36,169 nt of DNA from an uncultured Ectothiorhodospiraceae bacterium (GTDB taxonomy: Bacteria; Pseudomonadota; Gammaproteobacteria; XJ16; Halofilaceae): positions 1-36,169 of the forward strand of contig CAJXKK010000025.1 of the NCBI GenBank assembly GCA_913055615.1, given 5' to 3'. Shown here in pieces: positions 18,369 through 20,558 of the stretch; the first letter of the stretch is position 1, and each line of letters starts with the position of its first letter. The notes under the pieces are model-generated. The model was not told the origin of the DNA, did not search any database, and was given only the letters and a program-made list of their open reading frames with translations. A program made the translations under genes and the position numbers.

Positions 18369-18754
18369 GGTCGGATTTCGATCGGAGGGAGCTAGTGGGC
18401 CATCAGGAGAAAGTCAAAATCACCGCACGCCAGGGCGCGGAGCCCGCTAAGGAACGTCTGATTGTCGGGAGTACTGTAGGTCGGCCGGTTGTAATCAGAG
18501 CTTCCCTAAGGAAAGGCAAACCCGGGGCGGCTGACGAGCAGACGGTGCATGCCGGCAGTTGCCTTACGGCATGCGCCTTTACAGGACCGTGACCTCGACC
18601 ACCGGGAGGCTACCTTCGGTCTCAAGCCGGTATACGGGGTATCCCTCCAGATTTTCCTTACTCTGTTTTGCCTTCTCTTGGCGAGCTCCGCGTCCTGGCG
18701 TGAGGCGATTTTGACTTTCTCGAGTATGCCCCGCCTGTACGGCGGGAACGATCA
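18369..18754. repeat. Composite nested inverted-repeat region upstream of dcm
   Basis: No gene is evident in these 386 bases. Outer arms: 18407-18451 and 18677-18721 are inverted copies, 40 of 45 bases identical (GAGAAAGTCAAAATC...). Inner arms: 18448-18464 and 18492-18508 are inverted, 13 of 17. A further hairpin has arms GCATGCCG/CGGCATGC at about 18547-18574, and CCCGCC-TGTAC-GGCGGG lies at 18730-18746. The pattern (CACGCCAGGACGCGGAGC) resembles degenerate dispersed repeats seen in many proteobacteria. Adjacent frames read through the repeats only by chance. Confidence 0.7.
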
Positions 18755-18769
18755 CGGACATAATGTCCG
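18755..18769. promoter_or_regulatory. Probable operator for Dcm autorepression, over the -10 box
   Basis: CGGACATAATGTCCG is a perfect 15-bp palindrome with a central A. Half-sites GGACA/TGTCC are those of the operator that the related methyltransferase M.SsoII binds through its N-terminal HTH to repress its own gene. The centre contains CATAAT (18759-18764), a candidate -10 box that would start transcription near 18771, 25 bases before the ATG at 18796. No good -35 is seen. Confidence 0.65.
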
Positions 18770-18795
18770 CACTCCTTCCCACCGGTAATCCGATC

Positions 18796-20106
18796 ATGAC
18801 GGACGCCCCTGACGCCGACCGCGCCCTGCGTTCCGCGCTGCAACTGTTCACGCCGACGGAACTGGCCCGCGGACTCGGTGTCTGCGATCGCACCGTGCGC
18901 CGCTGGATCCGCGGGCAACCGGCGGTCCCGGCCCACTGGTCCGCGGCGATCGGCGGGCTGATGCGCGACTGGACCGCGAACGCGCCGGCCGGCACCGGCG
19001 CGTTCCGCTTCATCGACCTGTTCGCCGGCATCGGCGGCATCCGCCGCGGCTTCGAGGACGCCGGTGGCCACTGCGTGTTCTCGAGCGAATGGGACCGCTT
19101 CGCCCTGCAGACCTACCGCGCGAACTTCGGCAATGAGGACGAGGAGATCCACGCGGATCTGCGGGCAATAACGGCCGCCTCGGACGAGACCGCCGCGAAC
19201 AGCCGCAACATCCGCACACGGATCCCCGATCACGACGTGCTGCTGGCCGGTTTCCCCTGCCAGCCTTTCTCGCTCGCCGGGGTATCCAAGAAGAACAGCC
19301 TCGGACGCCGCCACGGTTTCATGTGCGAGGCACAGGGCACACTCTTTTTCGATGTCGCCCGGATCCTGGAGGTCAAGCGCCCGCGCGCCTTTGTGCTCGA
19401 GAACGTCAAGAACCTCCGCGGCCACGACGGCGGCCGGACGTATGCCGTCATCCGCCGGGTACTCGAGGAGGACCTCGGTTACCGCGTATACGATCGGGTC
19501 ATCGACGCAAAGGGCTTCGTCCCGCAGCACCGCGAGCGCATCTACATGGTCGGCTTCCGCGAGGACGTCCCGTTCGGCTGGGACCAGTTGGCGTTCCCCG
19601 AACCCGACGCGCGGACGCTCGGCGACGTCCTGCACCCGGAGGATGGCAGCGAGGTGCCGGAACGCCATTACACCGTCGGCGATCAGGCCGAAGTGGCGGA
19701 ACGTTACACCCTGAGTGCCCACCTGTGGCAGTACCTGCAGGATTACCGCAAGAAACACGAGGCGGCCGGCAACGGCTTCGGTTTCAGCCGGGTCGGACCG
19801 GGTGACACCGCCCGTACGCTGTCCGCGCGTTACCACAAGGATGGCTCCGAGATCCTGATCGACCGCGGCGAGGGGCAGCGCCCGCGCCGCCTGACGCCGC
19901 GCGAATGCGCCCGTCTGATGGGCTTCGGCGATGACTTCGCGATCCCCGTCTCCGACACCCAGGCGTATCGCCAGTTCGGCAATTCGGTCGCCGTGCCGGT
20001 CATCCGCGAGATCGCACGCACCATGATCCCGCAGCTGCTGGCTCAGATGCAGGCCGATCGCAATGCACCACAGCTGAAACTGGCGATGGAGACCGCCACG
20101 GCATGA
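18796..20106 (+). CDS. dcm: Dcm-type DNA (cytosine-5) methyltransferase with N-terminal HTH
   Basis: This 436-residue C5-methyltransferase is very similar in motif order to E. coli Dcm and M.EcoRII/M.SsoII, which methylate the inner cytosine of CCWGG or CCNGG. Residues 1-65 form a helix-turn-helix-like region (FTPTELARGLGVCDRTVRRWIRG). Motif I is FIDLFAGIGGIRRGF (72-86). Motif IV is GFPCQPFSLAGVSKKNS with catalytic Cys155. Then ENVKNL, QHRERIYMVGF, the target-recognition stretch, LSARYHKDGSEILIDRG, PRRLTPRECARLMGF and QAYRQFGNSVAVPV. The near-identity to Dcm over the target region suggests CCWGG, but that needs testing. The start 18796 is preferred: the earlier ATG at 18763 lies inside the palindrome and the candidate -10. 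The gene overlaps vsr by 4 bases (ATGA). No cognate restriction enzyme gene is visible. Confidence 0.95.
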   Translation: MTDAPDADRALRSALQLFTPTELARGLGVCDRTVRRWIRGQPAVPAHWSAAIGGLMRDWTANAPAGTGAFRFIDLFAGIGGIRRGFEDAGGHCVFSSEWDRFALQTYRANFGNEDEEIHADLRAITAASDETAANSRNIRTRIPDHDVLLAGFPCQPFSLAGVSKKNSLGRRHGFMCEAQGTLFFDVARILEVKRPRAFVLENVKNLRGHDGGRTYAVIRRVLEEDLGYRVYDRVIDAKGFVPQHRERIYMVGFREDVPFGWDQLAFPEPDARTLGDVLHPEDGSEVPERHYTVGDQAEVAERYTLSAHLWQYLQDYRKKHEAAGNGFGFSRVGPGDTARTLSARYHKDGSEILIDRGEGQRPRRLTPRECARLMGFGDDFAIPVSDTQAYRQFGNSVAVPVIREIARTMIPQLLAQMQADRNAPQLKLAMETATA

Positions 20107-20558
20107 CGGACATCATGGACGCGGCGACCCGCAGTCGCCTCATGGCCCGCGTCCGCGCCACCGATACCAAACCCGAGGTCGCCCTGCGCCGGGCCCTGTT
20201 CGCGCTCGGTTTCCGCTATCGCCTGTACCGCAAAGACCTGCCCGGCAAGCCCGATATCGTGTTGCCGAAGTACCACGCCGTCATCTTCATCCACGGCTGC
20301 TTCTGGCACGGCCATGACTGCGAACTGTTCCGGCTGCCGAAGACACGGCCGGAGTTCTGGCAAGCGAAGATCGATGCCAACCGCGAACGCGACGCCCGCA
20401 ACCGGACACGTCTTGAAGAGGCCGGCTGGCGCTCGCTGGAGATCTGGGAATGCGCCATGCGCGGCCGCGGGCGCTGGGATTTCGAACAGCTCGTACGGGC
20501 CGTCAGCGACTGGATCGTCTCCAACCACGACAGCACCGAGGTCCACGGTCGGACCTGA
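20103..20558 (+). CDS. vsr: Very short patch repair endonuclease
   Basis: This 151-residue endonuclease nicks beside T:G mismatches produced when 5-methylcytosine in Dcm sites deaminates, starting very short patch repair. Motifs: RSRLMARVRATDTKPEVALRRALFALGFRYRLY (about 11-43), PGKPDIVLPKYHAVIFIHGCFWHGHDC (48-74, with the catalytic Asp in KPDIV and the zinc-binding Cys/His cluster), RPEFWQAKIDANRERD, and WECAMRGR. Order and length match E. coli Vsr. The ATG at 20103 overlaps the dcm stop, as in E. coli; a second Met at 20115 is possible. It is co-transcribed and translationally coupled with dcm. Confidence 0.95.
   Translation: MTDIMDAATRSRLMARVRATDTKPEVALRRALFALGFRYRLYRKDLPGKPDIVLPKYHAVIFIHGCFWHGHDCELFRLPKTRPEFWQAKIDANRERDARNRTRLEEAGWRSLEIWECAMRGRGRWDFEQLVRAVSDWIVSNHDSTEVHGRT

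What the first reader, a model, noticed from the sequence alone, without database searches (positions are those of the whole stretch)
18755..18796. SsoII-type autorepression operator over the dcm promoter
CGGACATAATGTCCG (18755-18769) is a perfect 15-bp palindrome with GGACA/TGTCC half-sites, the half-sites I recall for the M.SsoII operator. The Dcm protein here has an N-terminal HTH-like region (LGVCDRTVRRWIRG) in the same place as the M.SsoII repressor domain. A candidate -10 (CATAAT) sits inside the palindrome. Together these suggest that an orphan Dcm-Vsr pair keeps the transcriptional autoregulation known from restriction-modification systems, and they move the start codon to 18796.
Basis: partly seen in the sequence, partly recalled or inferred. 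Interest (0 to 1): 0.68.

Follow-up and report, generated by a model that had tools for sequence, protein, structure and literature searches.

The report
Self-repression switch of a DNA methylase
The promoter of this solitary DNA-methylating gene carries a symmetrical docking site, conserved from proteobacteria to bifidobacteria, where the methylase most likely sits to switch off its own gene, although the cutting enzyme such switches normally accompany is gone.

Summary
The palindrome is real. CGGACAT-A-ATGTCCG (18755-18769) is perfect, and GGACANNNTGTCC occurs only 6 times in the 3.0-Mb genome; this is the only copy with flanking arms. It shares the half-sites and spacing of the published M.SsoII/Ecl18kI regulatory site (AGGACAAATTGTCCT). 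The dcm product begins with a helix-turn-helix, DRTVRRWIRG, nearly identical to Ecl18kI's DRTIRRWERG and keeping both arginines that Ecl18kI needs for operator binding. The conserved unit is a 37-bp nested dyad, 18744-18780: GGGAA and TTCCC arms exactly co-centred on the palindrome. It recurs upstream of HTH-bearing dcm relatives in Gammaproteobacteria, Bifidobacterium, EcoRII plasmids and phages, peaks at this one spacing, and was not found in relatives lacking the HTH. Codon changes against a same-genus species show that 18763-18795 is not coding, so dcm starts at 18796. The nearest relative outside the genus is dcm-vsr-EcoRII endonuclease; here and in the sister species no endonuclease lies next to dcm-vsr, so an orphan methylase kept its operator. 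New variant of a known kind.

The parts
18744..18748 (.). left outer arm GGGAA of the nested operator (offsets -18 to -14 from centre 18762)
   Evidence: sequence; G at -17 and -16 in 96% and 100% of 27 representative aligned loci; spacing test
18755..18769 (.). inner palindrome CGGACAT-A-ATGTCCG: predicted binding site for two HTH domains
   Evidence: sequence; rarity; same half-sites and spacing as the SsoII regulatory site; conserved in relatives
18759..18764 (+). candidate -10 CATAAT inside the palindrome (inferred; no good -35 here)
   Evidence: centre composition across loci is asymmetric, A0 .93, A+1 .81, T+2 1.0; TTGAC boxes upstream in L013, L016, L024, L027, L048; sigma-70 scan of this window negative
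18776..18780 (.). right outer arm TTCCC (offsets +14 to +18)
   Evidence: sequence; C at +16 and +17 in all 27 representative loci
18796..20106 (+). dcm: C5-cytosine methyltransferase of Dcm/EcoRII type with N-terminal HTH, 436 aa, start ATG 18796
   Evidence: Pfam DNA_methylase 1.3e-79; Shigella Dcm structures as best PDB hits; NCBIfam; start from codon substitutions
18853..18909 (+). HTH of Dcm: helix 20-27, recognition helix 31-38 (DRTVRRWI)
   Evidence: AlphaFold2 models; alignment with Ecl18kI R35/R38; structural matches to small HTH regulators incl. C.Kpn2I
20103..20558 (+). vsr: T:G mismatch endonuclease overlapping the end of dcm, presumably the same transcript
   Evidence: Pfam Vsr 1.2e-35; TIGR00632

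Best explanation
The 18744-18780 element is the operator of an autorepressed dcm-vsr operon. Two Dcm molecules dock their N-terminal HTH domains on the inner GGACA/TGTCC half-sites, and further contacts fall on the GGGAA/TTCCC arms one to one-and-a-half turns outside. The bound protein covers the -10 region and excludes RNA polymerase, so Dcm and the co-transcribed Vsr are held at a low level. By analogy with EcoRII, Dcm would be titrated off the operator by unmethylated CCWGG sites and return when the genome is methylated. The gene pair descends from an EcoRII-type dcm-vsr-endonuclease system that lost its endonuclease but kept this control. Shown: the palindrome, outer arms, conservation, HTH, orphan neighbourhood and start codon. 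Inferred: binding, repression, titration and the contacts of the outer arms.
For: GGACA-3-TGTCC matches the regulatory site of M.SsoII (PMC6100179). The N-terminus aligns with Ecl18kI (44% identity overall; DRTVRRWIRG vs DRTIRRWERG) and keeps R35/R38, whose alanine mutants do not bind the operator or regulate (PMC3695355). Upstream DNA of the sister species is diverged except for the operator and its surroundings. Nested dyad in 71 relatives: 17 of 65 usable loci pass the strict test at the observed spacing, 3 and 1 at the neighbouring spacings and 0-2 at all others; 12 of 19 phage loci not used to find the geometry pass a relaxed test. The strict or +-1 dyad occurs in 24 of 32 loci with the HTH and 0 of 33 without a close HTH match. 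Inner half-sites change with the recognition helix: RRW with GGACA; EcoRII-type NRW with GTGA; Bifidobacterium ERW with TCAT. EcoRII plasmid L041, from a system with published autogenous control, carries the same architecture. AlphaFold2 predicts a 4-helix HTH domain, a low-confidence linker at 60-67, then the MTase. Codons 18763-18795: 0 synonymous and 5 nonsynonymous changes, against 122 and 37 downstream, Fisher P=9e-4.
Against: No binding or expression data exist for this protein. There is no recognisable -35, and the transcription start is unknown. Several HTH-bearing relatives lack a clear dyad (e.g. L062, L026). The HTH profile used for the association was built from dyad-positive loci, so that test is partly circular. 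Relatives are not phylogenetically independent. Orphan status rests on the neighbourhood and on searches for two endonuclease families only.
Confidence: 0.87

Rival explanations
1. The element is an RNA hairpin or attenuator in a longer 5' leader rather than a DNA operator.
For: The nested inverted repeat could form a stem with an internal loop if transcription began upstream of 18740.
Against: Across loci the inner pairs are often broken (for example L013, L027, L060, L058), as tolerated in DNA half-sites but not in a stem; the centre keeps an asymmetric -10-like CATAAT; the element goes with the HTH domain.
Confidence: 0.04
2. It is a binding site for another, unlinked regulator of the host.
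For: Any dimeric regulator could use such a dyad; sequence alone does not name the binder.
Against: The five other GGACANNNTGTCC sites in the genome lie in open frames and lack the outer arms; the same architecture precedes dcm in unrelated hosts, plasmids and phages; half-sites vary with the Dcm recognition helix.
Confidence: 0.05
3. The palindrome is inherited sequence without present function, a remnant of the lost restriction-modification system.
For: Nothing shows expression or regulation in this organism; without an endonuclease the need for timing is gone.
Against: The 15-bp core is identical in two species whose dcm proteins are 91% identical and whose DNA further upstream has diverged, and the arms are kept as well.
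Confidence: 0.04

Closest known systems
M.SsoII / M.Ecl18kI regulatory site
   Same: Inner half-sites GGACA/TGTCC with 3-bp spacing, centred on A; HTH at residues 1-55 with the same recognition-helix arginines; site in the methylase promoter region.
   Different: Recognition CCNGG; divergent endonuclease gene that is indirectly activated; no GGG/CCC outer arms in Ecl18kI. SsoII-like phage loci L174 and L175 have GTGTCA/TGACAC outer arms instead.
M.EcoRII autogenous control
   Same: Same MTase branch (about 52% identity) and the same 37-bp nested geometry with GGG/CCC arms upstream of an EcoRII-type plasmid methylase (L041). Published: M.EcoRII represses its own gene and not the endonuclease, and only when substrate sites are methylated.
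   Different: Inner half-site GTGA/TCAC and a different, longer N-terminal HTH; the endonuclease is present. The original EcoRII footprint papers could not be read here.
Thioalkalivibrio sp. ALJ24 dcm-vsr-EcoRII endonuclease (L001)
   Same: 73% identical Dcm and the same operator CGGGCATGATGTCCG with GGGAA arm.
   Different: Complete three-gene system with the endonuclease after vsr.
E. coli-type orphan Dcm-Vsr
   Same: Dcm-Vsr pair without an adjacent endonuclease.
   Different: E. coli Dcm-like loci L068-L070 have a diverged N-terminus and no nested dyad.

Membership tests
SsoII-type dual-function methyltransferase-repressor | palindromic GGACA/TGTCC regulatory site in the methylase promoter region | tested here: met
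   18755-18769, same half-sites and spacing
SsoII-type dual-function methyltransferase-repressor | N-terminal HTH with the operator-contacting arginines R35 and R38 | tested here: met
   own R32 and R35 align with them; HTH fold predicted
SsoII-type dual-function methyltransferase-repressor | divergent cognate endonuclease gene activated by promoter competition | tested here: not met
   no adjacent endonuclease; upstream gene is a co-oriented hydrolase
SsoII-type dual-function methyltransferase-repressor | methyltransferase binds the site and represses its own gene | not testable with these tools
   needs gel shift and reporter assays
EcoRII/Dcm branch with nested autoregulatory operator (defined here) | GGG and CCC arms at -18..-16 and +16..+18 around the inner dyad | tested here: met
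   GGG 18744-18746, CCC 18778-18780
EcoRII/Dcm branch with nested autoregulatory operator (defined here) | C5 methyltransferase of the EcoRII/Dcm type | tested here: met
   Pfam, NCBIfam and PDB hits; CCWGG specificity itself not tested
Orphan (solitary) Dcm-Vsr | no cognate restriction endonuclease in the genome | tested here: inconclusive
   none adjacent; no EcoRII-C hit in G000, and the search detected a remnant in G001; the MvaI/BcnI search had no positive control

The most novel reading that the evidence does not exclude
The operator is read by both domains of one enzyme: the HTH reads the inner half-sites, while the methyltransferase domain reads the GG/CC outer arms as a decoy of its own CCWGG target. 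Repression would then directly report the amount of methylase not engaged on unmethylated genome sites, and orphan dcm genes would keep this methylation-sensing circuit. For: the outer arms stay GGG/CCC while the inner half-site changes with the HTH, and no true CCWGG lies within 25 bp of any operator. Against: phage locus L111 pairs an EcoRII-type methylase with a SsoII-type HTH and a GTGTCA left arm.
Probability: 0.25. Interest if true: 0.65.

Novelty: new variant of a known kind. Interest (0 to 1): 0.47.

Why it matters
Autorepression by methyltransferases was known from a few restriction-modification systems. This locus shows an orphan Dcm-Vsr pair keeping the switch after the endonuclease is gone. 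It also exposes a nested operator shared by EcoRII-type methylases across phyla, plasmids and phages. The outer arms are a concrete, testable lead to how methylase binding, target methylation and repression are coupled, including the published observation that EcoRII represses itself only when its target sites are methylated.

Tried and rejected
A first pattern search used the wrong half-site spacing (5 instead of 3) and is not informative. The sigma-70 and terminator scan found nothing. RNA hairpin reading rejected because inner pairs are not kept in relatives. The other GGACANNNTGTCC sites in the genome were inspected as possible further targets and rejected: in open frames, no arms. Outer arms as a second copy of the HTH half-site: possible in L014-L018 (GGGACA-like left arm), but EcoRII-type loci have different inner and outer motifs, so not favoured. 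Outer arms read by the methyltransferase domain: left open because of L111. G002, a same-genus genome without dcm, was checked for an empty site, but its hydrolase has different neighbours. Original EcoRII and Ecl18kI transcription papers were not held. CP003037 was not held; pECL18 was used as the SsoII-like reference.

Full report
OBSERVATION. Window 18755-18769 is CGGACAT-A-ATGTCCG, a perfect dyad centred on A18762. GGACANNNTGTCC occurs six times in the 3.0-Mb genome and its reversed control never. The other five copies are in open frames and have no outer arms. Beyond the finding's core, GGGAA 18744-18748 and TTCCC 18776-18780 form a second inverted repeat with exactly the same centre. A strict test for this nested geometry finds one place in the whole window, at 18762, and none at any other outer spacing.

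THE GENE. The ORF is a C5-cytosine methyltransferase of Dcm/EcoRII type (Pfam 1.3e-79; best solved relatives are the Shigella Dcm structures), followed by an overlapping vsr. Of the two in-frame ATGs, 18796 is the start. Against the same-genus genome G001 (91% identical protein), the 11 codons 18763-18795 differ by 0 synonymous and 5 nonsynonymous codons, against 122 and 37 in the compared codons downstream (Fisher P=9e-4). The ATG at 18763 is part of the palindrome.

THE HTH. AlphaFold2 predicts four N-terminal helices (5-15, 20-27, 31-38, 48-61), a low-confidence linker around 60-67 and then the MTase domain. The domain resembles small HTH regulators such as Aca proteins, HigA and the controller C.Kpn2I, at Z values (5 to 7.6) that show a common fold only. 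Against the authentic Ecl18kI methylase on pECL18, BLASTP aligns the whole protein at 44% identity including the N-terminus: DRTVRRWIRG against DRTIRRWERG. Ecl18kI R35A and R38A bind the regulatory site poorly (Kd above 4000 nM against 224 nM) and cannot regulate (PMC3695355); both residues are kept (R32, R35 here). The SsoII regulatory site is AGGACAAATTGTCCT (PMC6100179), with the same half-sites and spacing.

CONSERVATION. Dcm relatives were collected from named genomes, genomes of the same order, class and phylum, plasmids, phage records and viral contigs. In the sister species the operator is kept (GGGAATcgttaCGGACATAATGTCCGcagtcTTTCCC) while DNA further upstream has diverged. Scanning all outer spacings, the number of loci with a good inner and outer dyad peaks at the observed geometry. 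With full GGG and CCC and at least 4 of 5 inner pairs, 17 of 65 loci pass at the observed spacing, 3 and 1 at the neighbouring ones, and 0-2 elsewhere. In 19 phage loci not used to find the geometry, 12 pass a relaxed test at this spacing, 7 and 5 at the neighbouring ones and 0-4 elsewhere. In 27 representative, hand-aligned loci, G-17, G-16, C+16 and C+17 are 96-100% conserved, as are inner G-5, A-2, T+2 and C+5. The dyad was found by the strict or +-1 rule in 24 of 32 loci with a clear HTH match and in 0 of 33 without, including loci with no N-terminal domain and E. coli Dcm-like loci. The HTH profile was built from dyad-positive loci, so that contrast is partly circular; the loci with no N-terminal domain at all are not affected by this.

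WHICH PART READS WHAT. The inner half-site changes with the recognition helix: RTVRRW-type with GGACA, EcoRII-type ETLNRW with GTGA/TCAC, Bifidobacterium STVERW with TCAT-type. This is the pattern expected if the methylase's own HTH binds the inner sites. The outer GGG/CCC stays the same through these changes. Ecl18kI lacks it, and SsoII-like phage loci L174 and L175 carry GTGTCA/TGACAC at the same distance. [quoted passage not shown] That the MTase domain reads the arms is attractive, but L111 (EcoRII-type MTase, SsoII-type HTH, GTGTCA left arm) argues the other way, so it stays open.

PROMOTER. CATAAT (18759-18764) lies inside the inner palindrome, and the centre composition across loci is asymmetric in that sense. 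TTGAC boxes precede the left arm in L013, L016, L024, L027 and L048. Here no -35 is recognisable. The positions imply competition between Dcm and RNA polymerase, as shown for Ecl18kI; for this locus that is inference.

CONTEXT. The closest relative outside the genus, Thioalkalivibrio ALJ24 (73%), has dcm-vsr-EcoRII endonuclease, and most other operator-bearing loci have an EcoRII- or MvaI-type endonuclease nearby. In this genome and in G001 the pair sits in the same chromosomal neighbourhood (cyanophycin synthetase-like gene, isoaspartyl dipeptidase-like gene, hydrolase, dcm, vsr, mechanosensitive channel; names of the outer genes are by eye) without an endonuclease. EcoRII-C was not found in G000, while a broken fragment exists elsewhere in G001. 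The MvaI/BcnI search was negative but without a positive control. The simplest history is loss of the endonuclease with retention of methylase, Vsr and operator.

VERDICT. Autorepression of an orphan Dcm-Vsr operon through a nested operator of the EcoRII/Dcm branch is strongly supported by comparison and analogy, and untested by experiment. Similarly regulated methylases are known; the orphan context and the conserved outer arms were not described in the papers I could read. The original EcoRII footprint papers were not available, so novelty of the arms is provisional.

Noticed in passing
window 18407-18721: MITE-like element: 45-bp inverted termini (18407-18451 / 18677-18721, 89% identical) between the hydrolase and dcm, with partial copies at about ten further places in the genome, including a second inverted pair at C48:16659-16939. 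It ends just upstream of the dcm promoter.
   Followed up: partly
L024 664-2730 (-) and L027: Dcm methylases with a long C-terminal extension (689 aa in L024) whose sequence looks like an HNH nuclease, carrying the same HTH and nested operator: apparent methylase-nuclease fusions. The HNH assignment was read by eye, not scanned.
   Followed up: no
L174, L175 upstream of the methylase: SsoII-like phage methylases have a nested dyad of the same geometry but with GTGTCA/TGACAC outer arms and AGGACA/TGACCT inner sites.
   Followed up: partly
L086 (G001 C5:217220-217492): Broken EcoRII-C endonuclease fragment in the sister species, on another contig than its dcm-vsr.
   Followed up: no
L088 1974-4929: Burkholderia phage KL3 carries a complete dcm-vsr-EcoRII cassette with the same operator type.
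   Followed up: partly
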